A stretch of DNA of 64,000 nucleotides from an uncultured Ruminococcus sp. (GTDB lineage Bacteria; Bacillota; Clostridia; Oscillospirales; Acutalibacteraceae). This document shows, piece after piece, positions 19,740 to 58,268 of this stretch; within the stretch, counting starts at the first letter, position 1; each line of letters begins with the position of its first letter. The stretch covers positions 80,320 to 144,319 of the forward strand of contig CACYTI010000016.1 in the NCBI GenBank assembly GCA_902777275.1, given 5' to 3'. A program made the position numbers and the translations under genes. The notes below the pieces were generated by a model that had not been told where the DNA came from, made no database searches, and saw nothing but the letters and a program-made list of their open reading frames with translations.

Positions 19740-20321
19740 AAGCGCCGATGAGCACTTTTGGCATCTGTTGAACGATTTATAAAAATAAACCTTCCTTCAA
19801 CTGCGCGGTTTGACGCGGGAATTGAAGGAAGGATTTTACTTAGTGTGGAATGGGAATGTGGAAAGTGGAATGTGGAATGTGAAATTTGGAATTTCGGTTG
19901 TCGCTCCGCTCCGATTTGTAATGCTGTGGGATATTACGGCTGCCTTTGTGCGCCTGTAAAAAATGGATATAGAGGTCACCTTGTGATTGTAGGGGCGACC
20001 ATTGTGTCGCCCGGGGCGTTGAACAAAACGTTTTGTGTTCGTAACAACCGGCGGACGTAAAAACAACGTCGGTGCAAGGGAGCCCGCAAGGGGTCCCCTA
20101 CGGTGTCAAGGTAATGTTTACTGTCATTTTTACCTTTACTGCCGTAGTGACAGGGCTTGCCCCTGTGAAAACATTTCCGTAAAATCTGTATTATAACGCG
20201 GGAATAATGGTAAGGTTAAAATAAAACCGTTTGAAGCGCGGATTGGGTCAAGCGTCACGCTTGCGCGGATTGGGTCAAGCATCACGCTTGCACGGATTGC
20301 CATCCATCCCGTGGCAACGGG
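19740..20321. repeat. Mosaic repeat block 2 (no gene)
   Basis: About 580 bases without a credible gene. It holds the terminator-like hairpin CCTTCCTTCAA/TTGAAGGAAGG (19790-19832), a GTGGAATGTGGAA-type simple repeat (19840-19890), family-2 segments (AACAACGTCGGTGCA at 20062-20076, a shared 18-mer at 20104-20121, the ACAGGG-CTTGC-CCCTGT hairpin at 20150-20166), a 27-bp tandem (20236-20298) with CAAGCGTCACGCTTG palindromes, and CCCGTGGCAACGGG (20308-20321) touching the next stop codon. Confidence 0.85.
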
Positions 20322-21020
20322 TTATTCTTTCAGCTTGTTGAGCTTTTCTATGTGCTTGGCGCGCTTGTAGCGGTATAGGATATTTTCCGCCCATTCGCCG
20401 TCGATTTTAACAAAGCCCTTGAGCTTTTTATCCTTGACAGCGAATTTTTCGATTATGTCCTTTGACTTCGCGTAAATCTCAAGCCGCGCCGTCTGCACAT
20501 ATGGCTTGAGGTCATCTCCCGTGAAGTAGGTGAAGCCCATTGTGTTGCTCTCGCGGTCATACATCGACAGATATCCCTCGGCGATCTTTACGCCGCCCAG
20601 CTTGTTTGACACTGTCTGGCGTATTGCCGCTTTGGTAAGCTCGACCGCCATGTCGTCAAGGCGCGACTCAAAAATGAAAATCTTTTCCTTGAACGCATTG
20701 AAGTCGGGCACGATGCGTTTGTTGATATTGCGCAGATTGCTGAATTTTTTCTCTAAATCCCTGTCGCAGAGCTGAAAGCGTTCTATTTTAGGGATCAGGT
20801 AGACCATGAAGCTGTTATTCATGTCGTTATATAAAATCGGGTAGTTAAGACGTGCCTGATGACCGCAGTTATCGCACACCCACTCGAAAACAGAGCCGTC
20901 GAGCACGGCTTTTCGCAATTCGGGGTTCAGGGTAACGTTGATGCTTGTGAATATTTCAGCTCTTCCAAGCTCGCTGCACATGGGACATACCACGGCTTTT
21001 TTTGTTTTGCCCTCGGACAC
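20322..21020 (-). CDS. CpXC-domain protein
   Basis: 232 residues. The N-terminal CpXC domain shows VVCPMCSE (Cys pair near 12-15) and WVCDNCGH (near 48-51), forming a zinc-ribbon-like fold, then a long alpha-helical region with no recognised motif. CpXC proteins are conserved in Clostridia; the function is not known. There is no signal peptide, so it is cytoplasmic. The downstream hairpin CCCGT-TGCC-ACGGG begins at the base after its TAA. The promoter is at 21062-21090. Confidence 0.85.
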   Translation of the reverse strand: MSEGKTKKAVVCPMCSELGRAEIFTSINVTLNPELRKAVLDGSVFEWVCDNCGHQARLNYPILYNDMNNSFMVYLIPKIERFQLCDRDLEKKFSNLRNINKRIVPDFNAFKEKIFIFESRLDDMAVELTKAAIRQTVSNKLGGVKIAEGYLSMYDRESNTMGFTYFTGDDLKPYVQTARLEIYAKSKDIIEKFAVKDKKLKGFVKIDGEWAENILYRYKRAKHIEKLNKLKE

Positions 21021-21061
21021 GGTGCACCATCTCCTTTTTGGTTTATCACTTATAATTTTTA

Positions 21062-21090
21062 ATTATACCAATCATCGGCGGTTTTAACAA
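21062..21090 (-). promoter_or_regulatory. Promoter of the CpXC gene
   Basis: Minus strand: TTGTTA (21090-21085), 17 bases, TATAAT (21067-21062). It is back-to-back with the plus-strand promoter at 21109. Confidence 0.65.
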
Positions 21091-21108
21091 GTAAATTTTA
21101 AAAAAATG

Positions 21109-21137
21109 TTGATTTTATAAAAAAAATCTGTCATAAT
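21109..21137 (+). promoter_or_regulatory. Promoter of the coiled-coil protein gene
   Basis: TTGATT (21109-21114), 17 bases, CATAAT (21132-21137), about 64 bases before the start. Divergent from the CpXC promoter with only 18 bases between the -35 boxes. Confidence 0.55.
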
Positions 21138-21200
21138 AATACCGTATCAATATTATCGGCGCCGCAATTTTAACGGTAATGCCGCAAAGGGAGAATGAAA

Positions 21201-21713
21201 ATGTCGTTTATAAACACACTGATGGGCAGCCTTGCCGCGGCTGTGGACGCAATAGGCACCGCTGCGCAGAATATTGTTGAGAAAAAACGCACTGATGTGA
21301 AGCTCGACCGTATCAGAGAATTTATGAAGAGCGAAAGCGAGCTGATGAACCGCGCCTACATCGCGCTGGGCAAGGGATATTATGAGCAGATAAAAAAAGG
21401 CGCAAAGCCCAACACCGAACGCGAGGAAAAGTTAGTTAAGCTTATCGACAACTGCAAGGCGAGAATAGCAAAAGCCCGCGACTGCTACAGAAAAATTTTA
21501 GAGAGCCGCGCGGAGGCTTTGTTTGTCTCAGACACGGATAAGCAGGAGGAGCATTTTGAGAAAAAGGACGTTGTTGATATCACCGTAGCCTGTTCCAACG
21601 AAAACGAGTACGATTCAAGCCCGTTTGAAAAGAACGAAGAAAAAAAGGATTTGGTTGAGGAAATCGCGGACGAGATTATAGACGATGAATCGCCGATTGA
21701 TGAACTCTTTTAA
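21201..21713 (+). CDS. Coiled-coil hypothetical protein, acidic tail
   Basis: 170 residues, not recognised. The first ~25 residues are mildly hydrophobic (MSFINTLMGSLAAAVDAIG); residues about 30-110 are charged and helical (EKKRTDVKLDRIREFM...), likely a coiled coil; the C-terminal 50 residues are rich in Glu and Asp. The layout resembles small proteins sometimes linked to zinc-ribbon or secretion components, but no motif decides this. ATG 21201 is preferred over 21195 because the GGGAG is only one base from the latter. A terminator of the CTTCCTTCA family follows. Confidence 0.6.
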   Translation: MSFINTLMGSLAAAVDAIGTAAQNIVEKKRTDVKLDRIREFMKSESELMNRAYIALGKGYYEQIKKGAKPNTEREEKLVKLIDNCKARIAKARDCYRKILESRAEALFVSDTDKQEEHFEKKDVVDITVACSNENEYDSSPFEKNEEKKDLVEEIADEIIDDESPIDELF

Positions 21714-21757
21714 AAAAACCGGAATTAGAATCGCGGGATAATAAACCAAACTCCGCA

Positions 21758-21816
21758 CAAAAAATTCTTCCTTCAGCACCGCGTTTCGGCGCGAAAAATG
21801 AAGGAAGAATTTTTTA
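21758..21816 (+). terminator. Terminator of the recurring CTTCCTTCA family
   Basis: AAAATTCTTCCTTCA (21761-21775) and TGAAGGAAGAATTTTT (21799-21814) form a long stem with an inner GCGC-rich loop and a T-run. Confidence 0.85.
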
Positions 21817-21935
21817 TTGCCTGCCCGGTTGCACACTGCATGAGCACGAGCGAAGGTTAAAAAAGCGCACGCACAGGGTGCGCACGCTTTCTGTGAAATT
21901 GTGTCGATTGTAAAATAATTGGTTAACTTATTTGA

Positions 21936-22328
21936 TTAGCAGAAGAAAACGTCCATTTCGCCCTCTGTGCCGTCGGCTACGAAATAAGCCTTGCTTTCAT
22001 TGGGCTTGAGGTAAACTGCGATTTCCTTAGCGTCCTTGCCATAGGTAGCCTTAACATTGGCGACAACATCGTCAACGGAAACCTGTACTCCGCCGTACTC
22101 TACGAAGAAGTTGACCTTGGTGGGTTCGGGCTTCTTGGGAGCAACCTTCTTGGGGGCAGCCTTCTTGGGAGCGGCTTTCTTTGCGGCAGCCTTCTCAACG
22201 GTGGTCTCAACGGTGGTCTCAACGGCAGCCTTTACCTCTGCTGCTTTCTCGGCGGCTTTGGTAACCTTTTTCTCTGCGGGCTTTGTTTCTTTCTCTGCTG
22301 CGGCAGCAGCTTTTTTTGTTCTTGACAT
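21936..22328 (-). CDS. Lys/Ala-rich protein with small C-terminal domain (DUF6465-like)
   Basis: 130 residues. Residues 1-70 are almost only Lys, Ala, Glu, Pro and Thr (AAPKKAAPKK-type repeats), resembling histone H1-like or nucleic-acid-binding tails. Residues 72-130 form a compact domain (VNFFVEYGGVQVSV, then TYGKDAKEIAVYLKP, then DGTEGEMDVFF) found in Clostridia proteins of unknown role. A DNA- or RNA-binding role is an inference from charge. ATG 22328 with GAGGGA upstream is the start; the in-frame TTG before it is ignored. The promoter at 22396-22424 is strong, suggesting high expression. Confidence 0.75.
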   Translation of the reverse strand: MSRTKKAAAAAEKETKPAEKKVTKAAEKAAEVKAAVETTVETTVEKAAAKKAAPKKAAPKKVAPKKPEPTKVNFFVEYGGVQVSVDDVVANVKATYGKDAKEIAVYLKPNESKAYFVADGTEGEMDVFFC

Positions 22329-22395
22329 CAAAAATCCCTCTTTTCAGTCGTTGTTGATTTGTTGTTATTTTGTGCATTTTTTGCCTGCAAGAGTT

Positions 22396-22424
22396 ATTAT
22401 ACATAGACTCAAAATAATTGTCAA
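22396..22424 (-). promoter_or_regulatory. Promoter of the Lys/Ala-rich protein gene
   Basis: Minus strand: TTGACA (22424-22419), 17 bases, TATAAT (22401-22396): a consensus promoter. Confidence 0.85.
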
Positions 22425-22556
22425 TAATCACAAATTATTTTTGTCGGTTAATACAGATTTAAAAAAATAATCATTTTGACTTGGTTAATTTTCACAATAA
22501 ACAAACTCGCTTTTTGTAGATAATACAGTATTGACAGGCTGCTGCGGTTTTCGTAA

Positions 22557-22585
22557 TTGAAATTAAGCGCGCGTTATGATAGAAT
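22557..22585 (+). promoter_or_regulatory. Promoter of the AEC transporter gene
   Basis: TTGAAA (22557-22562), 17 bases, TAGAAT (22580-22585), leaving a very short leader before AAAGGAG. A TTGACA at 22531 lacks a good -10. Confidence 0.55.
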
Positions 22586-22609
22586 GATTTTGTAAAGGAG
22601 ATGATTGGC

Positions 22610-23545: not shown

Positions 23546-23557
23546 AAGGAGGTTGTT

Positions 23558-24559: not shown

Positions 24560-24622
24560 TGCTGATTTTTGGCGTTTGTTGTGATTTTTTTGTTGATTTG
24601 GTAAAAAATCAGCAAAAAAATA

Positions 24623-24685
24623 TTGACAAAATGTTATTATTATAGTAATATTCTAAAGTAAGATAGGATAATTGTACTTATCTTA
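24623..24685 (+). promoter_or_regulatory. Promoter with downstream inverted repeat, AraC-type gene
   Basis: TTGACA (24623-24628), 17 bases, TAATAT (24646-24651). Just after the expected transcription start lies TAAGATA (24659-24665) and its inverse TATCTTA (24679-24685), a possible operator or 5' hairpin. Confidence 0.7.
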
Positions 24686-25785: not shown

Positions 25786-26601
25786 ATGGATTACAAATTG
25801 ATCGCACTTGACATTGACGGCACACTCACCAATTCACGCAAGGAAATGACGCCTCGCACGCGTTACGCGCTTTTGGAGGCGCAGGCGCAGGGCAAAAAGA
25901 TCGTTTTGGCTTCGGGCAGACATCCGCTCGGGGTATACCCCATAGCGGCGGATCTGCAGCTTGAACGCTACGGCGGCTACATCATGTCTTTTAACGGGGG
26001 AAAAATAATTGACTGCTCTACCGACCGCACGATCGTCAGCAAGTTTTTCCCGCGCGAATATCTGCCCGACATCGTCAGCGTGCTGAAGGATTCAAACATC
26101 ACAATGATAACCTTTGACGACAGGCGTATTTACGCCGACAGCAAGGTGAACGACTACACCTACATCGAAAAAGAAGTGCTTAAAACCGAAATGGTCACTG
26201 TGTCGGATTTTGTGGCTGAAACAAAATTCCCGATAAACAAAATAGTGCTGACGGGCGAACCGTATGAGCTTGAAGAGTACCGGAAAGCTCTTGTTGAGCG
26301 CTATGACGGTCTGCTTTCGATTTACAACAGCGCACCGTATTTTCTTGAGCTTATGCCGTTCGGCATATCAAAAGGCTCAATGCTTCCTCTCCTGCTCGAA
26401 AAGTTAGGGATAAGCCGCGAGGAGCTGATCGCCTTCGGCGACAACTACAACGACATGACAATGATAGGCTACGCCGGAATGGGCGTTGCCATGGGCAACG
26501 GCGAGCCCGAGATCCGCAAAATAGCAAACTATGTCTGCGCTTCAAATGACGAGGACGGCATAGCCGACACGCTATATAAATTTGTTCTGCGCAACCATTG
26601 A
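25786..26601 (+). CDS. Cof-type HAD phosphatase
   Basis: A 271-residue cytoplasmic HAD-superfamily hydrolase of the Cof/YidA type, which dephosphorylates sugar phosphates and related metabolites. Motif I is DIDGTLT (residues 8-14), motif II is ASGRHP, the C2 cap occupies about 85-190, motif III Lys is in SKGSMLPLLL, and motif IV is GDNYNDMTM. RBS GGAGAG. The gene is monocistronic between its own promoter and repeat block 3. The substrate cannot be fixed from the sequence. Confidence 0.92.
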   Translation: MDYKLIALDIDGTLTNSRKEMTPRTRYALLEAQAQGKKIVLASGRHPLGVYPIAADLQLERYGGYIMSFNGGKIIDCSTDRTIVSKFFPREYLPDIVSVLKDSNITMITFDDRRIYADSKVNDYTYIEKEVLKTEMVTVSDFVAETKFPINKIVLTGEPYELEEYRKALVERYDGLLSIYNSAPYFLELMPFGISKGSMLPLLLEKLGISREELIAFGDNYNDMTMIGYAGMGVAMGNGEPEIRKIANYVCASNDEDGIADTLYKFVLRNH

Positions 26602-26604: not shown

Positions 26605-26950
26605 GCAGCGTGACGCTGCATCCATGACGCCTGTTAAACAAATGATATAATAAACACCTTCCTTCAACGGCGCGGTTTAACGCGTGAATTGAAGGAAGGT
26701 TTTTTTAGTGTGGAATGTGGAGTAAATGGGCGCTTCGCGCCGAATTTATTATGCTGTGGGATATGAACGCGCCCTTGTGCGCCTGTCGGATAAATATGGT
26801 GTTGTCCTTAACGTTGTTGGAACAGGGCTTGCCCCTGTCCTTGTGCGCTTAATCAAACGTTTTGTTTCCTATCAACAATCAGACTTGGAAACAACGTCGG
26901 TACAGAGGAAACTGATCATATTGATAAAAATGCCGAACAAAACGTCTGTG
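26605..26950. repeat. Mosaic repeat block 3
   Basis: Begins 3 bases after the Cof stop codon with GCAGCGTGACGCTGC (26605-26619). Then comes the terminator hairpin CCTTCCTTCAA/TTGAAGGAAGG plus T-run (26657-26706), a GTGTGGAATGTGGA simple repeat, a GGCGC-TTC-GCGCC hairpin (about 26729-26741), and family-2 segments: ACAGGGCTTGCCCCTGT (26822-26838) and AACAACGTCGGTACA (26889-26903). No gene is credible here. Confidence 0.85.
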
Positions 26951-31761: not shown

Positions 31762-31810
31762 TTGGCACCGGTGGGCGCTGTCGCGCTCATTTTCAAGGAG
31801 TATGATAAAA

Positions 31811-32989
31811 TTGGATATTTTGTCTGTATTAAAGGATTTGGCGATAATTGTTGTATTCGCCAAGGCTTTCGGTCTGCTTGCTCGAAAGCTCAAGGCTCCG
31901 CAGGTCGTCGGTGAGATCGTGGCGGGGCTGGTCGTCGGTCCCAGCGTGCTGGGCATTGTTAAGCTGAACGACTTTCTTGAAATCTGCGCGGGCATAGGCG
32001 TTGTGCTTCTTATGTTCTCTGCGGGGATAGGCACCAACCTAAAGCAGCTCATGCACACGGGCGTCAAGGCGTTGGTCATCGCCTGCTCGGGAGTTTTTGT
32101 TCCGCTTGTCGGGGGCACTCTGCTTTATATGGGCTTTTACGGCTTTTCGGAAATTGGCACGCCCAAGTTTTTCACTGCGGTGTTTATCGGTGTGATCATG
32201 ACCGCGACGAGCGTTTCGATCACCGTTGAGACTCTGCGCGAGATGGGCAAGCTTAAAACAGAGCTGGGCACGACTATTTTGAGCGCGGCGATCATCGACG
32301 ATGTTATCGGAATTTTAGTGCTTACGTTTGTGATCGGCTTTAAGGATCCCGACAGCAGTCCCGGGTGGATGGCGCTGCGCGCTCTCGCGTTCTTCGCTCT
32401 CTCGATCGTGCTCGGCTTTGTCACCTACAAAATTTTCAAGGTGATAGACAAGCGCTGGCCGCACACGCGCAGGATCCCGATTTTGGCGCTGGCGCTCTGC
32501 TTCGGGCTGAGCTACGTCGCCGAAAAATACTTCGGCATAGCGGATATAACGGGCGCTTACGTTGCGGGAATAATACTCTCCAAGCTGCATGATTCAACTT
32601 ATATTGAGCAAAAGTTAGATATCAATTCCTATATGATTTTCGGTCCCATATTTTTTGCGAGTATCGGCTTAAAGACGCAAATCAACGGCATTTCGTGGGA
32701 GCTTGTGCTGTTCTCGGCGGCGTTTGTCGCCGTGGCTTTAGGAACAAAAGTCATCGGCTGCGGCGCTGCGGCGCGCCTGTGCGGATTCAGGGGAACGGAC
32801 ACGCTCAAGGTGGGCGTTGGCATGATGACGCGCGGCGAGGTCGCGCTTATAGTGGCGCAGAGAGGTCTTGCCGAGGGTATGATAAGCTCGGAATATTTTA
32901 CCTCGGTAATTTTGCTTATCATAATTTCAAGTATTCTGACCCCGATCATCTTAAAGCTGCTATACTCGTCGGCTGAGCCGGCAGCTTGA
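31811..32989 (+). CDS. CPA2-type cation:proton antiporter
   Basis: About 392 residues with 12-13 hydrophobic segments. Family: Na+/H+ exchanger (CPA2, KefB/GerN-like), exchanging Na+ or K+ for H+ at the membrane. Seen: APQVVGEIVAGLVVGPSVLG near the start, SAGIGTNL, the paired-Asp helix IIDDVIGILVL near 160, and a C-terminal GMMTRGEVALIVA. There is no TrkA-N/C domain. AAGGAG (31795-31800) is one base from ATG 31802 but 10 from TTG 31811, so TTG is preferred. The last codons and the stop lie inside two palindromes of the repeat family, so the C-terminal SAEPAA may be repeat-derived. Confidence 0.88.
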   Translation: MDILSVLKDLAIIVVFAKAFGLLARKLKAPQVVGEIVAGLVVGPSVLGIVKLNDFLEICAGIGVVLLMFSAGIGTNLKQLMHTGVKALVIACSGVFVPLVGGTLLYMGFYGFSEIGTPKFFTAVFIGVIMTATSVSITVETLREMGKLKTELGTTILSAAIIDDVIGILVLTFVIGFKDPDSSPGWMALRALAFFALSIVLGFVTYKIFKVIDKRWPHTRRIPILALALCFGLSYVAEKYFGIADITGAYVAGIILSKLHDSTYIEQKLDINSYMIFGPIFFASIGLKTQINGISWELVLFSAAFVAVALGTKVIGCGAAARLCGFRGTDTLKVGVGMMTRGEVALIVAQRGLAEGMISSEYFTSVILLIIISSILTPIILKLLYSSAEPAA

Positions 32990-33118
32990 AGCTGCAATCA
33001 ATCTGCGGTCGGCTGAGCCGGCAGCTTGAAGCTGCACCCGATCCGCGCTTCTCAAAATCATAAAAAACCTTCCTCCAATTCCCGCGTCAGACCGCGCCGT
33101 TGAAGGAAGGCTGTTTTT
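32968..33118. repeat. Repeat block 5: 40-bp tandem palindromes plus terminator
   Basis: GTCGGCTGAGCCGGC (32968-32982) overlaps GCAGCTTGAAGCTGC (32981-32995), and the pair is repeated exactly 40 bases later (33008-33035). The antiporter stop TGA is the centre of the first GCAGCTT-G-AAGCTGC. A terminator follows: CCTTCCTCCAA (33068-33078) with TTGAAGGAAGG (33100-33110) and a T-run. Confidence 0.88.
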
Positions 33119-33185: not shown

Positions 33186-34901
33186 TTATCCCAGCTCAAC
33201 ATCAAACTCCGCCAAATACATTTGAAGTCTTGTCGCGTCGGCTACGGTCACCTCTCCGTTGCCGTCAACGTCAGCGGTAGCAATCTGTTTGTCGGTCAGG
33301 GCTTTGAACTCCGCGAGGCTTTGCTGAATGATCGTCACATCGGAAACGGTTATCGCTCCGTCCATGCTTACATCTCCCACGGAAGGATTATCAATGTAAG
33401 CTCTGAACGGCAAACCGCTTTTGCGGGCAAATTCTTCCGCGCAGGAACCGGCAGGGGCGAGGATCGTTACTTTATCGCAGCCTGCAAAGGCGTTATTCTG
33501 AATAAAAGTAACCGAATCAGGAATTATTATTTCTTCAAGACTCTTGCAGTTCTCAAACATTCCGAAGCCGTAGCTGCTTTCGCCGCCGAGTGTCTGCACA
33601 CCGTTGGGGATAACAAGGCTTTGCAGGCTGCGGCAGTTGGTGAAGGCTTCCTCACCGATGTGAGTGACTGTGGCAGGAATTTCGAGAGTTTTAAGTCTGC
33701 GGCAGTCATAAAAAGCCTCGTCGCCTATCGTTTCAAGGCTTGTGCTGAGGTTTATGCTTTCAAGGAACAGGCATTTTTCAAATGCGCTTTCGCTGATTTC
33801 CGTCACATTGTTGCCCATTGAGACGGTTTTTATTTCGGTGCACCCGAAAAACACACCTCTGCCAATAACTGTGACTGATTCGGGAATAGAAACGCTCTGA
33901 ATGTCGGTATTGTACGCAAACAGCCAATTGCCGAGCTGTGTTACGGCTTTTCCGCCGATAGCATGCGGAATGACAAGCTGATTATCAACCAAATTACATT
34001 TTATCAGCTTTATCGAATCATCGGAAAGTATCGTGTACTCATATATAGCACGAAACCTCACTCCGTCTCTCGTGCAATAAGCTTCCGCTTCCGAACCAGT
34101 GTTGCCGTAAATCGTAAGATCGGTACTGCATCTGTAAAACGCGCTACCGCTGATACTTGTCACGCTGTCGGGAATCGTTACGCTTGTTAAGCCGGTGCAG
34201 CAGTAAAATGCATCATATCCGATTTCTGTCACACTGTTGCCAAGGAAAACGCATGTCAGGCTCCTGCAGTTGTAAAACGCAGAGCTTTCTATACTTGTAA
34301 CGCTATCGGGAATGATTATGCTTTTTAGGCTTGTACAGCTGTAAAACGCAGAATTGCCTATAATTGTCACACCTTCGGGAACGCTTACGCTTATCAGGCT
34401 CGTACAGTTGTAAAACGCTTTATAAGCAATACTCGTCACGCTGTCGGGAATAGTTATGCTTGTCAGGCCTGCGCCTTCAAACGCACTCTCACCTATGCTC
34501 GTTACACTGTTGGGTATAATTATGCTTGTCAGGCTATTGCAGTATTCAAACGCAGAAGCGCCTATACTCGTAACGCTGTCAGAAATTGTAACGCTTGTTA
34601 GACTTGAGTAGGCGTAAAAAGCAGAATCGCCGATATTTGTGACGCCGTTTTCAATAATAACTTTGCTAATACTTGTGTTCCACCACGGTGATGAGAGTGG
34701 GTTATAATCCCCCATCGCCCCGTTTCCGCTGATCGTCAGTGTGCCGTCATCGTCGAGCGTCCATGTACAGTCGCCCGTTGTGCCGCTTGAAGCGCCTACG
34801 TTTTGCTCTGTCTCCGCCGCCGAAGCCGTGAACGGTAAAGCCGAAAGCAGCACGACAGCCGCAAGCAGAACGGCTATTGATTTCATAAATTTTTTCGTCA
34901 T
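33186..34901 (-). CDS. Secreted leucine-rich-repeat (BspA-type) protein with dockerin
   Basis: 571 residues. The signal peptide (to about residue 28, ASAAE) is followed by a short TTGDCTWTLDDDGTLTISGNG segment and then about 15 BspA/LRR_5 repeats of the pattern SVTSIGxxAFxxCxSLTSxxIPD (residues ~80-490). The C-terminus is a type I dockerin: loops DVSMDGAITVSD and DVDGNGEVTVAD with paired helices ending YLAEF. LRR_5 surface proteins mediate adhesion or protein contacts; the dockerin would place this one on a cohesin-bearing scaffold. GGAGGAG is 8 bases before the ATG. A tandem paralogue lies upstream. Confidence 0.92.
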   Translation of the reverse strand: MTKKFMKSIAVLLAAVVLLSALPFTASAAETEQNVGASSGTTGDCTWTLDDDGTLTISGNGAMGDYNPLSSPWWNTSISKVIIENGVTNIGDSAFYAYSSLTSVTISDSVTSIGASAFEYCNSLTSIIIPNSVTSIGESAFEGAGLTSITIPDSVTSIAYKAFYNCTSLISVSVPEGVTIIGNSAFYSCTSLKSIIIPDSVTSIESSAFYNCRSLTCVFLGNSVTEIGYDAFYCCTGLTSVTIPDSVTSISGSAFYRCSTDLTIYGNTGSEAEAYCTRDGVRFRAIYEYTILSDDSIKLIKCNLVDNQLVIPHAIGGKAVTQLGNWLFAYNTDIQSVSIPESVTVIGRGVFFGCTEIKTVSMGNNVTEISESAFEKCLFLESINLSTSLETIGDEAFYDCRRLKTLEIPATVTHIGEEAFTNCRSLQSLVIPNGVQTLGGESSYGFGMFENCKSLEEIIIPDSVTFIQNNAFAGCDKVTILAPAGSCAEEFARKSGLPFRAYIDNPSVGDVSMDGAITVSDVTIIQQSLAEFKALTDKQIATADVDGNGEVTVADATRLQMYLAEFDVELG

Positions 34902-46859: not shown

Positions 46860-47245
46860 GCAGCGTGACGCTGCACCCATGGCGGCTTTGGACAGCGCCA
46901 TATAGAAATAACCTTCTGTTAACGCCGCGTCATAACGCGTGAATAGCGTTAAAGTTTTTGTCAAACGTTTGAAGCGCGGTCGTTGCCGCGACGGGGCAGG
47001 GCGGCTTTGGACAGCGTCGTTAGAAGATAACCTTTCTTAAACGCCGCGTCATAACGCGGGAGTGACGGTAAAGATTTTGCAAACGTTTGGAGTGCGGTCG
47101 TTGCCACGACGGGGCAGGGCGGCTTTGGACAGCGTCGTTAGAAGAAAACCTTTCTTAAACGCCGCGTCATAACGCGGGAATGACGGTAAAGATTTTGATA
47201 AACGTTTGAAGCGCGGACTGACCGTCGGCTCAGCCGACCGCTCGC
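46860..47245. repeat. Mosaic repeat block 6: three ~118-bp tandem units
   Basis: Opens with GCAGCGTGACGCTGC (46860-46874). Units start at GGCGGCTTTGG: 46881, 47000 and 47118 (periods 119 and 118). Each carries a CCTTTCTTAAACG-like arm, a CCGCGT-CATA-ACGCGG hairpin, an ACGTTTG segment and, between units, GTCGT-TGCC-ACGAC (46979-46992 with one G-U type change, and 47097-47110). It ends with GTCGGCTCAGCCGAC (47224-47238). The block is non-coding. Confidence 0.88.
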
Positions 47246-50853: not shown

Positions 50854-51128
50854 CCTTCCTTCTTTGCACGCGTTTGAACGCGCCGGTCGGCTGAGCCGAC
50901 AATCAATCCGCGCTTCGTAACAACATAAAAAGCCCTTCCTTCTCTGCACGCGTTAAAACGCGCCGGTCGGCTGAGCCGACAATCAGTCCGCGCTTCGTAA
51001 CAACATAAAAAGCCCTTCCTTCTCTGCACGCGTTAAAACGCGCCTTTGAAGGAAGGCTTGTTTTTTATATTTTTAATAGTCGCACTGCATGCGACTCAGT
51101 CGCCGCCCTGCCCCGTCGTGGCAACGAC
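50854..51128. repeat. Mosaic repeat block 7: 80-bp tandem
   Basis: Units start at CCTTCCTTC 50854, 50934 and 51014: an exact 80-base period. Each has an ACGCGT-TAAA-ACGCGC-type hairpin and GTCGGCTGAGCCGAC (50886-50900, 50966-50980). The third copy instead closes into a terminator with TTGAAGGAAGG and T-run (51046-51068). Then come GTCGCA/TGCGAC (51080-51096) and GTCGTGGCAACGAC (51115-51128). Confidence 0.9.
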
Positions 51129-51233: not shown

Positions 51234-52772
51234 ATGACAAACAAAACCGAATCTGTTCAGATCCGCTATTTCAGCGGCTATATACGCAATTACAAGGCTC
51301 TTTGCGCCGAGTTGGGCATTGACCCGACTCTCAGCCGCACTGAGCGCGAGGAAGCTATCTTAAAGGCTTCTTATATAGAGTGGGGGCTTGAGATGACCGA
51401 CCATATATATGGTATGTTCGCGATAGGTGTGTGGGACGATGCTTCTCAAAAGCTTTATATTATCCGCGATCAGGTGGGTCAAAAGCAGATGTTCTACGCC
51501 GTCGCGGGCGGCGAGCTGCTTTATTCGGGCGACATAAACGAGATAGCGGCTGACCCGCGCCTTGAAAAGCGCCTTAACAAGCGTATGCTGCAGCAGTATT
51601 TGTTCTACGGCTATCCCATCGGCGAGGAGACCTTTTACGAGGGCGTGTACAAGCTCAGACCCGGTCACTATGCCGAGTGGGACGGAAAGACCGTTTCGGT
51701 TCACCGCTATTTCAAGCCTGTTTTTGAGCCTGATAACAGCAAGACCGTTGACGAGTTTGCCGGGGAGATCAAAGCCGTCGTCGAGGAGATTTTAAGCGAA
51801 GAGCGCGGCGACGCCGAGCTTCCCTACAAGGAGTCGTTTTTGTCGGGCGGCGTCGATTCCTCTTATCTGCTCGCAGCGAGCGACGCTCAGGCGGCGAACA
51901 CCGTGGGCTATGAGGAAGCGGGCTTTGACGAATCCGCTCTTGCAAAGCGCACCGCCGAGATTTTGGGCAGGGGCTTCAACGTTAAGATGATCACTCCCGA
52001 GGAATACTTTGACCGCATACCGACCGTTATCGACAAGCTGGGTCAGCCCTTGGGCGACGCCTCGGCAGTTGCTTTTTCATTGGGCTGCGCCGCTGTGCGC
52101 GAGCACGCCGAAGTGGTGTATTCGGGCGAGGGCATAGACGAGTTTTTCGGCGGCTACAACGCCCACAAGCGCGTTCTGCCGCCCGAGTGGACGTATCTCA
52201 CCTGTTCTCATATCATGTCCGAGGAAGTCGTCAAGTCGCTTATGAAGGATTATGACAGCTCGGTAAAGGCGGTTGACCCCGTTGCTCCGCTGTGGGAGGA
52301 GGTCAAGGGTCAGAACGCTCTTGCGCAGAAGCTCACAATTGACATTTCGCTCTGGCTTGAGGGCGATATCTACCTCAACACCGACCGCACAAGCACCGCC
52401 TGCGGAGTTGAGCTTCACACTCCGTTCAGCGATTTAAGACTGTTCAAAGTGGCGCGCAGGATCCCTGCGGAATATCAGTTTGAGGGCGATCAGAACAAGA
52501 TAGTGTTCCGAACCGCCGCCGAGAGCAAGCTTCCGCATGAGGTCGCGTTCCGCAAAAAGGTCGGCTTCCCCGTGCCCGTTCGCAAGTGGCTTGCCGACGA
52601 ACGCTATAACCGCCCCGTTGAGGAAAAGCTTTTCGGAGAGTCCTCAAGGCTCTTCTTTGATCAGAACGAAATCAAAAAGATGTGGGAGAGCTTTATTAAC
52701 GGAGAAGCTTTGCTCTGGAACAGAGTATACGCCGTTTACGCCTTCCTGCTCTGGTACGATTTGAAATTTTAA
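51234..52772 (+). CDS. Asparagine synthetase homologue without the glutaminase Cys
   Basis: 512 residues. The C-terminal half is the AsnB synthetase domain with the PP-loop FLSGGVDSSYLLA near 203 and GEGIDEFFGGYN near 300, which adenylates the substrate carboxyl. The N-terminal half aligns with the class II glutaminase only from the NGEIYN-equivalent (here FSGYIRNYKALCAEL) onward: the catalytic Cys2 and about 60 following residues are missing. GGAGG lies right before the ATG, so the shortening is real, not a wrong start. Likely reaction: ammonia-dependent asparagine formation, or amide formation on another substrate; lasso-peptide cyclases are also AsnB relatives without Cys2. No precursor gene is seen nearby. 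Confidence 0.88.
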   Translation: MTNKTESVQIRYFSGYIRNYKALCAELGIDPTLSRTEREEAILKASYIEWGLEMTDHIYGMFAIGVWDDASQKLYIIRDQVGQKQMFYAVAGGELLYSGDINEIAADPRLEKRLNKRMLQQYLFYGYPIGEETFYEGVYKLRPGHYAEWDGKTVSVHRYFKPVFEPDNSKTVDEFAGEIKAVVEEILSEERGDAELPYKESFLSGGVDSSYLLAASDAQAANTVGYEEAGFDESALAKRTAEILGRGFNVKMITPEEYFDRIPTVIDKLGQPLGDASAVAFSLGCAAVREHAEVVYSGEGIDEFFGGYNAHKRVLPPEWTYLTCSHIMSEEVVKSLMKDYDSSVKAVDPVAPLWEEVKGQNALAQKLTIDISLWLEGDIYLNTDRTSTACGVELHTPFSDLRLFKVARRIPAEYQFEGDQNKIVFRTAAESKLPHEVAFRKKVGFPVPVRKWLADERYNRPVEEKLFGESSRLFFDQNEIKKMWESFINGEALLWNRVYAVYAFLLWYDLKF

Positions 52773-52941
52773 CCCGTTGCCACGGGAGGGCAGTCCGCGG
52801 TCGGCTGAGCCGACAATCAATCCGCGCTTCGTAACAACATAAAAAACCTTCCTTCTTTGCACGCGTTAAAACGCGCCGTTGAAGGAAGGTTTTCTTTTTA
52901 GCGATTTTTTAATAGGCGCCCTGCCCCGTCGTGGCAACGAC
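52773..52941. repeat. Mosaic repeat block 8
   Basis: Starts on the base after the stop codon with CCCGTTGCCACGGG (52773-52786), then GTCGGCTGAGCCGAC (52800-52814), a terminator CCTTCCTTC/TTGAAGGAAGG with T-run (52847-52899), and GTCGTGGCAACGAC (52928-52941). Confidence 0.9.
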
Positions 52942-52951
52942 CGCGCCGACA

Positions 52952-53333: not shown

Positions 53334-53381
53334 AACAAAATCTCCTTTTCTTTATATTGCCGGAGCGAGGCGCTGTTGCTA

Positions 53382-53552: not shown

Positions 53553-53695
53553 TTTCGATTTCTCCTTTGCGTTTTTTCTGAGGCAATTATAACATAACAA
53601 CAGTGACAAGATTGTGACAAATTTCAAAAGATTTTAAAAACTTTTTCGATTTATTCAAAATTTATCGGAAACCTACTAAAATTTTTATTGTGATA

Positions 53696-53724
53696 TTGTA
53701 TTTTAGTATACTTTATGCTATGAT
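53696..53724 (+). promoter_or_regulatory. Promoter of the four-gene membrane operon
   Basis: TTGTAT (53696-53701), 17 bases, TATGAT (53719-53724), 27 bases before the ATG. Confidence 0.6.
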
Positions 53725-53751
53725 ATTATCAAAAAAGAGGCGTGGGTCGAT

Positions 53752-54798: not shown

Positions 54799-54804
54799 AA
54801 ATAA

Positions 54805-55440
54805 ATGGATATTCAAATGTTTTTTCCGCAGACGGCGGACGCTATAATTCCGCCCGAAAATCTGAGAAGCAACACCGACCAACAAAGCTACGAAAGCTCG
54901 TATGTTGAGCCGACCGAGGAAACTACCGAAGAGCCGACAGAGGAACCGACTCAGGCTACAACCGCTCAGGCAACAACTCAGGCTCCGACTCAGGCGACAA
55001 CTCAAGCGCCGACTCAGGCTTCGACTCAGGCGACAACTGCTCAGGAAACAACTCAAGCGACGACCGCGGCGGGCACCGTGCAGCCTTTTACAACCCCTTC
55101 TTCGGGCTCGCAGAGCGGCACTGACACACTGCTGACCGTGCTGCTGATCGTTATACCGGTTTTGTTGGCGGCGCTGATCGCGCTTGTGATCGTGCTTATC
55201 GTGCGCAAAAACAAAGCGCCTAAGCTCCCTCCGCAAAATCCGAATAACGGAATGCCGCCGCAATATCCGGGCAACGGAATGCCGCCGCAATATCCGGGCA
55301 ACGGAATGCCGCCGCAGAATCCGGGCAACGGAATGCCCCCGCAGAATCCGGGCAACGGAATGCCCCCGCAGAATCCGGGCAACGGAATGCCCCCGCAGGA
55401 TCCGAACAACGGAACGCCGACGGATTTTAGCGGACGATAA
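54805..55440 (+). CDS. Low-complexity single-pass membrane protein with FFP-TAD N-terminus
   Basis: 211 residues, without a classical signal peptide. It starts MDIQMFFPQTADAIIPPE, then has a Glu/Thr/Gln/Ala-rich repeat (about 30-95; PTEETTEEPT and TQATTQAPT types), a membrane helix (LLTVLLIVIPVLLAALIALVIV, near 112-135), a short basic segment, then six Asn-Gly-Met-Pro-Pro-Gln-x-Pro-Gly repeats encoded by 27-base units. The N-terminus shares FFP-TAD-xxPP with the next small protein. Probably a surface or wall-spanning protein, function unknown. AAGGAG lies 10 bases before the ATG. Confidence 0.7.
   Translation: MDIQMFFPQTADAIIPPENLRSNTDQQSYESSYVEPTEETTEEPTEEPTQATTAQATTQAPTQATTQAPTQASTQATTAQETTQATTAAGTVQPFTTPSSGSQSGTDTLLTVLLIVIPVLLAALIALVIVLIVRKNKAPKLPPQNPNNGMPPQYPGNGMPPQYPGNGMPPQNPGNGMPPQNPGNGMPPQNPGNGMPPQDPNNGTPTDFSGR
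55246..55407 (+). repeat. 27-bp tandem coding repeat, six units
   Basis: Six 27-base units starting at 55246 (AACGGAATGCC...), followed by a partial one, encode the nine-residue Asn-Gly-Met-Pro-Pro-Gln-x-Pro-Gly repeat. Units 1-2 have Tyr and later ones Asn at the x position. Confidence 0.9.
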
Positions 55441-55457
55441 ATTCAGGAGAATAAAAA

Positions 55458-55640
55458 GTGAGTGAAATATTAAGCGGTTTTTTTCCGACGGCAGACGTGG
55501 CGTATCCGCCGCCGACCGAATATATAACGCGGCTTTTGTCTGAGTTTTGGCTTCCCATGCTGCTTATATTCATTGTAATACCTGCCGTAGTTGCAGTTGT
55601 GGTGCTGCTTTTGATAAAAAGAAACATAGGGCGGCGGTAA
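55458..55640 (+). CDS. 60-residue membrane protein with FFP-TAD N-terminus
   Basis: 60 residues: MSEILSGFFPTADVAYPP, then one membrane helix (FWLPMLLIFIVIPAVVAVVVLLL), then KRNIGRR. GTG start with CAGGAGA upstream. Same order of parts as the preceding protein but without the repeats, which suggests that the two come from one ancestor or bind the same partner through the FFP-TAD motif. The stop codon is directly followed by the ATG of the next gene. Confidence 0.65.
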   Translation: MSEILSGFFPTADVAYPPPTEYITRLLSEFWLPMLLIFIVIPAVVAVVVLLLIKRNIGRR

Positions 55641-56003
55641 ATGAGCAGTCTTGTCTGTGCGCTGCTGTCGGCGCTGGCGCTCACTTTGGCGGCGGAGCTT
55701 TCCGTCGCCGCGATACTCGGCGTGCGCGGTTGGGATTTGGTGATTATAGGGCTGGTGAACTGCCTGACAAATCCCCTTGTCAACTACGCTTATTGGTGGG
55801 CGTGGGCGCTTTGGGGCGGAGTCGGTGTCGTTCCCTATCTTGTTTTGGCGGCGCTTGAAATTTCGGTGCTGTTCGGCGAGGCGGTGATGTTCAAAAAGCT
55901 GCTTCTCTACCGTAAAATCAAACCCCTGCTGCTTTCACTTATTCTGAACGCTTCATCCTTTGTGCTCGGAATAATTATCGCGCTGTTAGGGGTAAAATTT
56001 TAA
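55641..56003 (+). CDS. Small polytopic membrane protein
   Basis: 120 residues with three or four hydrophobic segments. The sequence VNCLTNPLVNYAYWW near residue 40 is distinctive (LTNPLxN also occurs in related small membrane proteins). It begins at the base after the upstream stop, so it is translationally coupled. Function unknown; last gene of the operon, followed by a terminator. Confidence 0.7.
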   Translation: MSSLVCALLSALALTLAAELSVAAILGVRGWDLVIIGLVNCLTNPLVNYAYWWAWALWGGVGVVPYLVLAALEISVLFGEAVMFKKLLLYRKIKPLLLSLILNASSFVLGIIIALLGVKF

Positions 56004-56066
56004 GGGAATCTCTAATAATTCTCTACCGCGCATAAGCACGGTAGGGGATTTTTGGAGATTCCTTTA
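56003..56066 (+). terminator. Nested hairpin terminator
   Basis: TAAGGGAATCTC (56002-56013) pairs with GAGATTCCTTTA (56056-56067), enclosing CTACCG...CGGTAG (56023-56044). It ends the membrane-protein operon. Confidence 0.7.
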
Positions 56067-56093
56067 AATAGAAAGTATTGAGAGGAAAGAAAA

Positions 56094-56564
56094 ATGCTTA
56101 TTAGGAGTTTTAGAAATAGTGACGCTGAAACTGTTTCTGCAATGATTATCCGAACCGAAAAAATAACAAACAGTAAGGATTATTCTGAAGAATGGATAAA
56201 CGCTCTCGAAACACGAGCGCAGCCATCGGATATATTAGAGCGTGCCGGTTGGACGCATTTTTATGTTGCTGAGGAGAATGATACGATCGTCGGCTGCGGT
56301 GCGATCGGTCCTTATTGGGGCAGCGAAACCGAGAGCAGTTTGTTTAATATATTTGTTTTACCTGAATATCAAGGCAAAGGTATAGGCAGAAAAATAGTTG
56401 AAACACTTGAACAGGACGAGTATTTCCTCAGAGCAAAACGTGTGGAAGTTCCTGCGTCCATCACGGCTGTTAATTTCTATCGAAAGTTAGGATATGATTA
56501 TAAAAACGGAGTTGACCGTCCCGACGAGGAACAGATATATCGTTTGGAAAAGTTCAGATATTGA
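56094..56564 (+). CDS. GNAT family N-acetyltransferase
   Basis: 156 residues. Starts MLIRSFRNSDAETV; the acetyl-CoA loop is YQGKGIGRKIVE near 100, and the following NFYRKLGYDYKNG is the usual late motif. The acceptor is unknown. First gene of the AT-richer accessory region; AGAGGAAAG before the ATG. It is followed by the broken HAD gene after 48 bases. Confidence 0.9.
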   Translation: MLIRSFRNSDAETVSAMIIRTEKITNSKDYSEEWINALETRAQPSDILERAGWTHFYVAEENDTIVGCGAIGPYWGSETESSLFNIFVLPEYQGKGIGRKIVETLEQDEYFLRAKRVEVPASITAVNFYRKLGYDYKNGVDRPDEEQIYRLEKFRY

Positions 56565-56612
56565 TGATGAAATGCCTATAATAAAACAAATCAGTGGAAT
56601 TACCGGAGAATA

Positions 56613-57328
56613 ATGAATATGACAAAGTACAAAACCTATCTGTTTGATGCGGACGGAACATTGCTCGATTATGACAAGGCTGAATTGCAGGCATTAAAAA
56701 AACCTTTCGATTTTATCATCTTGATTATAATGATCAAATTGAAAAAACATTTGCGGATATTTGCAGCTTGGAATGGAAAAGATTTGGCTTGTCTAATACA
56801 GCAGAAAAAGAAATACAATCACGATTCCACGCGCTTTATTATGACTACTCTGAAAGCCGTTTTTGTGAATTGGTCAAACGCTTTGAGCTTTCGGTTTTGC
56901 CAAAACAATTTGATATATCCTATCGTCAGCATCTCGCACAGCAAACGGATGAGATCCCTTTTGCGAGAGAAGTGTGCATGAAATTGTCCGAGTTTGCAAA
57001 CGTATATGTTGCATCGAATGGCTTATCCGATATTCAAAAATCCAGACTGATCCACTTTCAACCGTACCTAAAGGTTATTATTGTATCGGAAGACTTGAAT
57101 TGCTGCAAACCGTCAGAAGAGTTTTTTGAGAAGGCAATAGCGATTGCGGGTGTTGAAGACAAAAGCACGGTGCTCTTGGTCGGAGATTCACTGACATCTG
57201 ATATTCTCGGAGCAAATCGTTTTGGGGTCGATTCATGTTGGTTTAATAGGAAGAAGAAAAAGAATAACACACAGATAATACCTAACTATGAGATCGATTC
57301 CCTGAATCAGCTTGTTACATATGAATGA
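56613..57328 (+). pseudogene. HAD hydrolase (YjjG-like), frameshifted in an A-run
   Basis: The front part (56613-56702) reads TYLFDADGTLLDYDKAE, HAD motif I. The frame then breaks in the run of seven A at 56696-56702. One more A would give LKKTFRFYHLDYNDQIEK and join directly to the long frame that ends at 57328, which has motif II-type ASNGLSD, Lys in NCCKPSEEFF and motif IV GDSLTSDI. Total length near 238 matches YjjG-type nucleotidases. Either a pseudogene, a sequencing/assembly error, or a slippery A-run used by polymerase or ribosome. The start may be ATG 56613 or 56619 (GGAG at 56605). Confidence 0.85.
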
Positions 57329-57389
57329 TTAAGAAGATGAAATAGAAAAGCACCGGAATGGTGCGCAAAACCCATGAACAAATCGACGT

Positions 57390-57590
57390 TAAGGAGCGCG
57401 GACTGATTGTCGGCTAAGCCGACCGGAAGTGGAAACAACGTCGGTGCACGGGCGACCAATGCGTCCCTACGATGTCAAGGTGATGTTTACGATTAATTTT
57501 TCCTTAACTGTGTAGGGGCGCTGAATCAGGCGTTTTGTTTTCTATCGACAATAGGGACGGGAAACGAACGTCGGTTCATCAAAAGGTTCA
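57390..57590. repeat. Mosaic repeat block 9, family-2 segments
   Basis: GTCGGCTAAGCCGAC (57409-57423), AACAACGTCGGTGCA (57434-57448), an 18-base segment shared with 20104-20121 (57473-57490), and a CGTTTTGTTTTCTATC segment similar to 26.86 kb. The following 57591-57870 is AT-rich with no gene I can support. Confidence 0.8.
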
Positions 57591-57878
57591 TATGTTCCTT
57601 AAGGCACGTGACAATATGAACAACATGAACACTATGTGTTTGACAGAGTCCGCCAAGATGTCTTTTCTTTGCCGTACCGACAAGGACTTTGTTGACAGAT
57701 AAAGCTGTTTGAAATCGGCAAAAAGAAAATGTCGTTGAAAAAGAAACGATTTTGTATTTCGCTTGATACAAGGAAATACTTTCAGCAAATTATGGCTCTT
57801 TGATTTTTGAAAAAATATTGTTCGCATTTTTTGACTATGATTTTTCATGCGTGGGACGTGTAAGCACACAGAAACCTA

Positions 57879-57907
57879 TTGACAAAACAAAAAAGCAATG
57901 ATATAAT
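57879..57907 (+). promoter_or_regulatory. Consensus promoter of the leader/rsgA unit
   Basis: TTGACA (57879-57884), exactly 17 bases, TATAAT (57902-57907): a full-consensus sigma-A promoter, the strongest in the window. Confidence 0.92.
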
Positions 57908-57961
57908 ACCGATAATAATTTGCCAACAAAAAATATAGGCAAATGCGAAAGGAGAACGAAT

Positions 57962-58051
57962 ATGATTGTCAGCGAGGTATATTCCGGAATATTGGCACGC
58001 TTTAAGCTTAGGGACGGAAAGCCCCTGTTTTTGCTGTGCCGCTTAATGTAA
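57962..58051 (+). CDS. 29-residue leader peptide upstream of rsgA-type gene
   Basis: A short ORF with AAAGGAG 7-8 bases before its ATG and a consensus promoter 55 bases upstream. It encodes a 29-residue peptide starting MIVSEVYSGILARF and ending LFLLCRLM. Its last codons (58035-58041) pair with 58076-58082, which would block the terminator hairpin just after. This is the layout of ribosome-controlled attenuators that sit before resistance or translation-factor genes. Not recognised as a known named leader. Confidence 0.6.
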   Translation: MIVSEVYSGILARFKLRDGKPLFLLCRLM

Positions 58052-58106
58052 CCTTTCGTGATTATAGACTGCTTACGGCACACTCGGAAAGGGTGTGTTT
58101 TCTTTT
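58035..58106 (+). promoter_or_regulatory. Attenuator-like alternative hairpins
   Basis: Antiterminator: TGTGCCG (58035-58041) with CGGCACA (58076-58082). Terminator: CACAC (58079-58083) with GTGTG (58093-58097), followed by TTTTCTTTT. The two share 58079-58082 and exclude each other. CCTTTC (58052-58057) with GAAAGG (58087-58092) is another competitor. A ribosome at the leader stop would cover the first arm and favour termination; one stalled earlier would favour readthrough. Confidence 0.55.
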
Positions 58107-58124
58107 GCCTAATTTTTCCGGTAC

Positions 58125-58168
58125 GCCGCAGAAAATTCCCGAACGGGTTGCTTTCTGCGGCTTTTTTA
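58125..58168 (+). terminator. Second terminator in the rsgA leader
   Basis: GCCGCAGAAA (58125-58134) pairs perfectly with TTTCTGCGGC (58152-58161), then a run of T. It would end the short leader transcript unless it too is bypassed. Confidence 0.85.
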
Positions 58169-58181
58169 TTGCACTGTTTGA

Positions 58182-58268
58182 CCTCGCCGTTGAGAATCGT
58201 TTCCGTTAAACAGGAGGGTTACCAAAGGCGAGATTGAGTGCAACGTCACGTTGCTGCGGTTTTTTTGC
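58182..58268 (+). other. Third structured segment before rsgA
   Basis: CTCGCC (58182-58187) can pair with GGCGAG (58227-58232); right after it lies GCAACGTCACGTTGC (58240-58254), a 15-base palindrome of the window-wide TGA-centre family, then CTGCGG and seven T. Possibly a further attenuator or a repeat insertion. Confidence 0.5.

What the first reader, a model, noticed from the sequence alone, without database searches (positions are those of the whole stretch)
20249..58254. 15-bp palindromes with constant TGA centre and five different arm pairs
The same design N6-T-G-A-N6' occurs with different arms: GCAGCGTGACGCTGC (26605, 46860), GTCGGCTGAGCCGAC (50886, 50966, 52800; inverse at 47224; variants at 32968, 33008 and 57409), GCAGCTTGAAGCTGC (32981, 33021), CAAGCGTGACGCTTG (inverse at 20249; variant 20276) and GCAACGTGACGTTGC (inverse at 58240). 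All have 7-bp arms around one base and T/A next to the centre. Strong arm covariation with a fixed centre points to a structure-recognised element, for example a REP-type end, a small RNA stem or a protein-binding site family.
Basis: seen in the sequence. Interest (0 to 1): 0.85.

Follow-up and report, generated by a model that had tools for sequence, protein, structure and literature searches.

The report
Shape-conserved hairpin repeats at gene ends
This gut-type bacterium carries dozens of copies of a 27-letter DNA module whose folded hairpin shape is kept while its letters change, and the module often sits exactly where a gene ends, sometimes supplying the gene's stop signal.

Summary
The palindromes are real: the exact coordinates match, and the window holds 11 TGA-loop palindromes against 0.60 +/- 0.69 in shuffles. 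They are 6-bp hairpins with a TGA triloop followed by a 12-nt linker (NNNCARTCCGCG): a 27-nt "cap", also found in tandem. A model of it hits 57 of 150 genomes of the genus (own included; E <= 0.01) and 11 of 295 of the order (own included; E <= 0.001). Arms covary strongly with almost no G-U pairs. In one sister-species comparison the outer hairpin differs while linker and inner cap are the same; in a second the outermost unit differs at one flank. Of 83 outermost caps facing a gene's 3' end, 27 abut the stop codon or contain it; GTAG-REPs gave 0 of 18 within 10 nt. In other genomes 7 of 20 loci abut tRNA/tmRNA 3' ends. I read this as a new modular interspersed repeat of the BOX/REP kind, kept as a DNA-level hairpin cassette. 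It is not a canonical REP (no GTAG foot; no Y1 transposase found in three cap-rich genomes). A general terminator role is not supported (22 of 205 caps). The mobiliser is unknown.

The parts
17438..17464 (+). cap, TGCC-loop type CCCGTTGCCACGGG + AGGGCAGTCCGCG
17638..17658 (-). cap, TGCC-loop type GTCGTTGCCACGAC + GGGGCAG, directly after the TAG stop of ORF 17659-18072 (-)
20237..20263 (-). cap CAAGCG-TGA-CGCTTG + ACCCAATCCGCG
20264..20290 (-). cap CAAGCG-TGA-TGCTTG + linker, second tandem copy (27-bp period)
20291..20321 (-). TGCC-loop cap with longer linker, directly after the TAA stop of the CpXC-domain gene 20322-21020 (-)
26605..26631 (+). cap GCAGCG-TGA-CGCTGC with linker diverged at its end, 3 nt after the TGA stop of the HAD hydrolase gene 25786-26601
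26657..26705 (+). body: long stem CCTTCCTTC..GAAGGAAGG with T-run (terminator-like)
32968..33007 (+). truncated GTCGGCTGAGCCG joined to cap GCAGCT-TGA-AGCTGC + AATCAATCTGCG; the TGA loop 32987-32989 is the stop codon of the Na+/H+ exchanger gene 31802-32989
33008..33047 (+). second copy of the same 40-nt double unit, with a different linker
46860..46886 (+). cap GCAGCG-TGA-CGCTGC + ACCCATGGCGGC at the left end of a 118-bp-period mosaic
46979..46999 (+). TGCC-loop cap between bodies
47097..47117 (+). TGCC-loop cap between bodies
47212..47238 (-). cap GTCGGC-TGA-GCCGAC + GGTCAGTCCGCG at the right end of the mosaic
50886..50912 (+). cap GTCGGC-TGA-GCCGAC + AATCAATCCGCG, in an 80-bp-period array
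50966..50992 (+). cap, next unit of the 80-bp array
51108..51128 (-). TGCC-loop cap at the right end of that element
52773..52799 (+). TGCC-loop cap directly after the TAA stop of the asparagine synthase gene 51234-52772
52800..52826 (+). cap GTCGGC-TGA-GCCGAC, second tandem unit
52827..52920 (+). body with terminator-like stem (CCTTCCTTC..GAAGGAAGG, T-run)
52921..52941 (-). TGCC-loop cap at the right end, opposite orientation
57397..57423 (-). cap with TTA loop, GTCGGC-TTA-GCCGAC + AATCAGTCCGCG
58228..58254 (-). cap GCAACG-TGA-CGTTGC + diverged linker

Best explanation
The palindromes are the hairpin half of a 27-nt cap module: a 6-bp stem, a TGA (less often TGCC, TGC, TGT) loop, and a linker NNNCARTCCGCG. 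The cap is the repeated end piece of a non-autonomous, modular interspersed repeat family of Oscillospirales-type bacteria. Shown: arm covariation at a fixed loop and linker; tandem and mosaic copies; outer hairpin or unit differing between sister species at the same place (two loci); placement exactly at stop codons or tRNA/tmRNA 3' ends for a large minority. Inferred: the constraint acts on a DNA hairpin (single strand or cruciform) that an unidentified enzyme, or the replication machinery, handles as a cassette; most changes arise by replacing whole hairpins rather than by stepwise compensatory mutation; selection keeps copies at gene ends, where the cap follows the stop codon or supplies one. 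The mobilising machinery is not identified.
For: Sites chosen by linker only (up to 1 mismatch): of 167 with TGA at the loop position, 139 have all 6 pairs and 13 have 5; of 575 without it, 8 and 4. On 69 distinct 27-mers: covariation score 0.802 against 0.180 shuffled and at most 0.148 slid, all 6 pairs changed on both sides, 126 cells changed on both sides and 4 on one side only. Model R1: 59 hits in the own genome, 57 of 150 genomes of the genus and 11 of 295 of the order, own included in both. Sister species: L257/L273 share linker and inner cap but have CCGC-TGCC-GCGG against GACGGC-TGA-GCCGTC as outer hairpin; L252/L274 have different outermost units at the same flank. RUG196 has one more copy of a 68-bp unit than RUG447. 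Gene ends: of 83 outermost caps facing a gene's 3' end, 11 start at -1..0 from the stop, 16 have the stop inside the cap, 7 lie at 1-10; GTAG-REPs 0 of 18 within 10 nt. At two own sites with TA|G, relatives have a native stop after the same codon and no cap there. All nine -1 cases have caps whose first base completes TAG (8) or TAA (1).
Against: No enzyme found: no multi-copy mobile gene near caps; no Y1_Tnp in three cap-rich genomes; no RVT_1 in G126, G153, G166. No clean single-cap insertion with empty site and target duplication was seen. Only one of the two sister-species differences is a plain hairpin-for-hairpin exchange, and it comes with a tandem duplication in L273. A1 was pre-filtered on pairing, so its 96.4% is inflated. 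Arm types may descend from few founders. ORF calls are crude, some array-internal caps remain among the 'outermost', and at least one insertion (own C1, RUG230 L130) is counted in two species. 49 of the 83 caps facing a gene's 3' end lie more than 10 nt beyond it, and 24 of 162 outermost caps lie inside an ORF call.
Confidence: 0.55

Rival explanations
1. An RNA-level 3'-end element: the hairpin acts in the transcript just after the stop codon or the tRNA CCA, with a terminator behind it, for 3'-end formation or stability.
For: Placement at stops and tRNA/tmRNA ends. In L234 and L235 the RNA folds as cap hairpin, 4-nt spacer, strong terminator stem, U-run; z -9.2 and -6.8.
Against: Terminator-like stems follow 22 of 205 caps (own genome 10 of 53) against 38 of 323 cap-free gene ends and 102 of 2000 random windows. 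Only 4 of 399 paired cells are G-U, which an RNA would tolerate. 40 of 162 outermost caps face gene 5' ends.
Confidence: 0.25
2. A REP-like element moved by a Y1 (TnpA-REP/RAYT or IS200/IS605) transposase that reads hairpin shape.
For: Short dispersed intergenic hairpins in tandem and inverted arrangement; three Y1_Tnp genes in the own genome; Y1_Tnp in 7 of 11 relatives with caps, among them RUG277, RUG196 and RUG447.
Against: 0 Y1_Tnp in RUG13014, RUG230 and CAMJOD, which carry 61, 56 and 53 R1 hits; these MAGs are 94, 85 and 90% complete, so a missed gene is possible. No GTAG foot. No TGA-loop hairpin lies in the 2.6-3.3 kb loci of the three own Y1 genes. No strand bias, 47 against 50.
Confidence: 0.13
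3. The covariation is mutational: template switching between the arms keeps them complementary without selection.
For: Changes on both sides with almost no G-U intermediates. Template switching is proposed to make multibase compensatory changes (PMC8794818, passages). Nested partial hairpins such as those in L265 look like template-switch products.
Against: No inverted loop (TCA beside the linker) is among the non-TGA sites with 5 or more pairs listed. At L257/L273 loop and arms differ together, which arm-to-arm copying does not do. The fixed loop, linker and position are unexplained.
Confidence: 0.22
4. A family of operator sites for a DNA-binding protein.
For: Palindromic dyads of constant size, mostly outside ORFs.
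Against: Arms differ at all six positions while the loop is fixed, the reverse of a usual operator; many copies follow stop codons.
Confidence: 0.04

Closest known systems
BOX elements of pneumococcus
   Same: Modular interspersed repeat with tandem modules and predicted RNA folding; of 58 CDSs overlapping BOX, 36 take their stop codon from BOX at the extreme 3' end (PMC3049150, passages).
   Different: The cap is a 6-bp/TGA hairpin with covarying arms and a GC-rich linker; caps abut stops at -1/0 and tRNA CCA ends. No BOX sequence was compared.
REP/REPIN sequences of TnpA-REP (RAYT)
   Same: Short dispersed extragenic hairpins, often paired.
   Different: No GT[AG]G foot (REP features: PMC6006769, section 12; caps); no Y1 gene found in three cap-rich genomes. 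A separate GTAG-type repeat exists in the same genome.
MITEs
   Same: Short, non-coding, dispersed, with outward caps at both ends.
   Different: The terminal hairpins can differ between the two ends of one element; no target-site duplication was seen by eye in the elements inspected.

Membership tests
Canonical REP (TnpA-REP associated) | 5' GT[AG]G at the foot of the hairpin | tested here: not met
   Bases just 5' of 202 outermost caps are mostly CG, CA or a stop codon
Canonical REP (TnpA-REP associated) | Y1 transposase gene in the genome, flanked by the repeat | tested here: not met
   Y1_Tnp found in 7 of 11 relatives but in none of RUG13014, RUG230, CAMJOD; no TGA-loop hairpin in the loci of the own Y1 genes
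IS200/IS605-type single-strand transposition | Use of the lagging-strand template, expected to bias orientation | tested here: inconclusive
   47 G-rich-strand against 50 C-rich-strand orientations; local GC skew on draft contigs is a weak proxy
MITE | Matching terminal inverted repeats and target-site duplication | tested here: inconclusive
   Caps at both ends but with different hairpins; no duplication by eye
BOX-like modular repeat | Defined modules in variable copy number | tested here: met
   27-nt caps in up to 5 tandem copies (L087); an 80-bp unit in tandem and a 68-bp unit varying between relatives
BOX-like modular repeat | Sequence homology to boxA/B/C | not tested
   No BOX sequence was compared
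Known RNA family (Rfam 15) | Score above gathering threshold | tested here: not met
   0 matches in the window; only tRNAs in 12 related loci
Intrinsic terminator | GC-rich stem followed by U-run | tested here: not met
   The linker after the cap is not a U-run; a terminator-like stem follows within 220 nt of 22 of 205 caps

The most novel reading that the evidence does not exclude
A hairpin recognised by shape, not by arm sequence, is inserted or exchanged as a cassette precisely at the ends of gene products (stop codon, tRNA CCA), by machinery that is neither a Y1 transposase nor a reverse transcriptase, and can replace the gene's own stop codon with the TGA of its loop.
Probability: 0.23. 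Interest if true: 0.8.

Novelty: new variant of a known kind. Interest (0 to 1): 0.55.

Why it matters
It gives a clear natural case in which hairpin shape and loop persist while the arms change on both sides, so selection on structure, template switching and cassette exchange can be told apart. If the precise placement at stop codons and CCA ends reflects targeting, it would be a new way for a mobile element to find harmless sites. The closely related genome pairs found here make this testable.

Tried and rejected
Rejected or weakened: chance; Y1/RAYT as the current driver in at least three genomes; reverse transcriptase or group II intron as driver (RVT_1 in 5 of 16 genomes, none in G126, G153 or G166); an autonomous copy with a repeated gene (among 1374 ORFs near caps the within-genome matches listed were ordinary paralogues or ORFs reading through repeats). 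A loop-linker kissing interaction (TGA with TCA, TGCC with GGCA) was considered by eye and dropped because ACCCA and GGGCAG linkers beside a TGA loop do not fit. A general cap-plus-terminator model was my working idea; one search went against it. TA as a DNA target: caps without a nearby ORF have TA just 5' in 3 of 132. A fixed-sequence pattern found the module poorly in relatives: 5 of 39 genomes matched, own included, and by eye only the own genome and G006 with paired arms. Literature: seven searches showed no description of this family in the held library; subscription papers are not covered. Papers: PMC6006769 abstract, outline and section 12; PMC8794818 passages; PMC3049150 passages; all others as search listings.
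Full report
OBSERVATION. The window has 11 perfect 6-bp/3-nt palindromes with TGA or TCA loop; 100 dinucleotide shuffles gave 0.60 +/- 0.69, maximum 2. In 464 kb of the genome (window plus 400 kb of stretches), 49 of 231 such palindromes have this loop, and the next commonest loop class has 15. With ORFs of at least 120 aa taken as coding (399 kb coding, 65 kb other), 38 of 49 TGA-loop palindromes are not wholly inside an ORF, against 54 of 182 with other loops.

THE UNIT. Read 5' to 3' on the TGA strand, most hairpins are followed by a 12-nt linker of the form NNNCARTCCGCG, giving a 27-nt cap. Tandem copies have a 27-bp period. A second family with TGCC loop (CCCGT/ACGGG, GTCGT/ACGAC arms) has similar length and placement. 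Caps lie at both ends of some mosaic intergenic elements, pointing outward, with different hairpins at the two ends (for example 46860-47238 and 52773-52941).

COVARIATION. In the own sequence and the relatives' loci I chose sites by the linker alone, allowing one mismatch: 742 sites. 167 have TGA at the loop place; 139 of these have all six pairs, 13 five, 4 four, 11 three or fewer. Of the 575 others, 8 have six and 4 have five. For alignment A1 I kept sites with at least 4 pairs (TGA loop, G-U counted) or 6 pairs (other loops): 166 sites, 71 distinct 27-mers. I dropped two that looked like chance, leaving 69. Its 96.4% pairing is therefore partly built in. The covariation score is 0.802 against 0.180 (shuffled) and at most 0.148 (slid); all six pairs change on both sides; 126 cells are changed on both sides and 4 on one side. 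The relatives' loci came from a pattern that fixes the two bases on either side of the loop and most of the linker, so pairs 5 and 6 are partly selected there; pairs 1 to 4 are not. The scarcity of G-U pairs suggests pairing at the DNA level or block exchange. Arm types may go back to few founders.

DISTRIBUTION. A pattern scan of named genomes reported 101 stretches, 80 of them listed as loci L066-L145; 8 of those are from unrelated taxa and look like chance, and 72 are from Clostridia, Ruminococcus or Oscillospiraceae records such as RUG13014, RUG230, RUG277 and SRR12081292_bin.9 (here CAMJOD). Covariance model R1 hits 57 of 150 genomes of the genus at E <= 0.01, own included. There are 59 hits in the own genome, 61 in G126, 56 in G153, 53 in G166, 50 in G116. 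Many genomes have a single weak hit, E-values are rough, and only the best 50 candidate stretches per genome are scored. In the order it hits 11 of 295 genomes, own included, at E <= 0.001. Identical loci show that G126 is RUG13014, G153 RUG230, G166 CAMJOD, G116 RUG277 and G095 RUG196.

TURNOVER. CAMJOD and RUG277 contigs align at 89.5-96.7% (excluding one short match). I compared four orthologous cap loci by eye. At L257/L273 the inner cap and the next linker are shared but the outer hairpin is CCGC-TGCC-GCGG in one and GACGGC-TGA-GCCGTC in the other; L273 also has a tandem duplication. At L252/L274 the flank is the same, but L274 has a CAAGCG cap outermost where L252 has a partial TGCC-type unit and one more TGCC-type cap. 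At L265/L267 a cap follows the same TAA, with extra partial caps in L265. At L254/L270 the same cap is kept. RUG196 has one more copy of a 68-bp unit than RUG447.

GENE ENDS. A first scan kept 325 caps, 274 outermost; 78 have a same-strand ORF of at least 100 codons ending within -60 to +20. Distances peak at 0 (10), -1 (9), -9 (19) and -16 (5); -9 and -16 mean that a TGA inside the cap is the stop, which follows trivially for any ORF entering the cap in that frame. At -1 the gene ends in TA and the first base of the cap completes the stop: 8 caps start with G, 1 with A, none with C; at 0, 6 of 10 start with C. Some rows are not family arms; keeping family arms leaves 202 outermost caps: 10 at 0, 9 at -1, 21 with the stop inside, 30 at other distances, 132 without such an ORF. 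A stricter set (220 caps, 162 outermost; ORFs of at least 120 aa) gives 83 facing a gene's 3' end: 16 with the stop inside the cap, 11 at -1 or 0, 7 at 1-10, 13 at 11-50, 18 at 51-150, 18 beyond; 40 face a 5' end, 24 lie in an ORF call, 15 have no ORF. GTAG-type REPs in the same sequence: 43, of which 18 face a 3' end and none lies within 10 nt. At two own sites relatives show the native stop: RUG13014 has TAA where the own genome has TA|G (C3:58056), and CAMJOD has TGA after the same last residue where the own genome has TA|G (C3:56194). Of eleven relatives of the window's asparagine synthase gene, nine end at the same codon and two one or two codons later; none shows a full cap in the 400 nt printed, and L174 has a partial one directly after its TAA. 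Where a cap supplies the stop, I printed 15 C-termini; they look natural by eye, and one was checked: the Na+/H+ exchanger domain reaches profile position 371 of 375. In the window five genes end at, or within 3 nt of, or in a cap (17659, 20322, 26601, 32989, 52772).

tRNA ENDS. Of 20 separate loci of other genomes brought by R1 (array copies and one off-centre locus, L231, left out; several are from the same genome), 7 have a cap within 4 nt of the 3' end of a tRNA or tmRNA gene, in L223 sharing its CCA, and 4 have a cap at or containing a stop codon, in L222 a neighbouring cap. In L234 and L235 a strong terminator stem begins in the linker. That does not generalise: terminator-like stems follow 22 of 205 caps within 220 nt (15 of the 220 were too near an end), against 38 of 323 cap-free gene ends and 102 of 2000 random windows.

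MOBILISER. Y1_Tnp: 3 in the own genome; present in 7 of 11 relatives, including RUG277 (2), RUG447 (2) and RUG196 (1), but not found in RUG13014, RUG230, CAMJOD or RGIG2444. RVT_1: 5 of 16 genomes, none in G126, G153 or G166. No repeated mobile gene near caps. Cap orientation has no bias to the G-rich strand, 47 against 50 in five genomes. So the enzyme, if any, is not identified.

COMPARISON. Canonical REPs have a GT[AG]G foot and TnpA-REP association (PMC6006769, section 12); caps lack the foot, and three cap-rich genomes lack a detected Y1 gene. BOX elements are modular and supply stop codons to 36 of 58 overlapping CDSs (PMC3049150, passages), so a repeat supplying stops is not new. Template switching is proposed to produce compensatory changes in hairpins (PMC8794818, passages). 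New here, as far as seven library searches show, are the fixed-loop covarying cap, its replacement between sister species, and its exact placement at stop codons and tRNA ends.

VERDICT. A real modular repeat family for which I found no name; the anatomy is shown, the mechanism is partly inferred, and the mobiliser is unknown.

Noticed in passing
window 19985-20166; C1 49611-49844; L168, L169: A separate GTAG-foot palindromic repeat (GTAGGGGCGCACC.. and variants) is dispersed in the genome; two Y1_Tnp (RAYT-like) genes, L168 and L169, have in-frame stretches that resemble it, as described for REP subclass 2.4.
   Followed up: partly
L275 about 1310-1475 against L261 about 3390-3410: An insertion of about 150 bp flanked by copies resembling TTAATAC is present in CAMJOD and absent in RUG277, apparently just after a stop codon: a MITE-like insertion unrelated to caps.
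   Followed up: no
C1 120231, C2 12627, C2 65385; window 56007-56041: Another repeat family of about 120-160 bp (AACCTCTAA..CGCGCATAAGCACGGAA..) in several copies.
   Followed up: no
L230 (G176:C5 about 34024-34455): A genome of another family has a 101-bp tandem array, each unit with a GCAGGG-TAA-GCCCTGC-like hairpin plus a CACCCAATCCGC linker.
   Followed up: partly
C1 16550-16648: A CTGT tetranucleotide tract of about 100 bp; its gene context was not checked.
   Followed up: no
window 55231-55419: Seven 27-bp repeats (consensus reads as Pro-, Gln-, Asn- and Gly-rich codons) inside an ORF.
   Followed up: no
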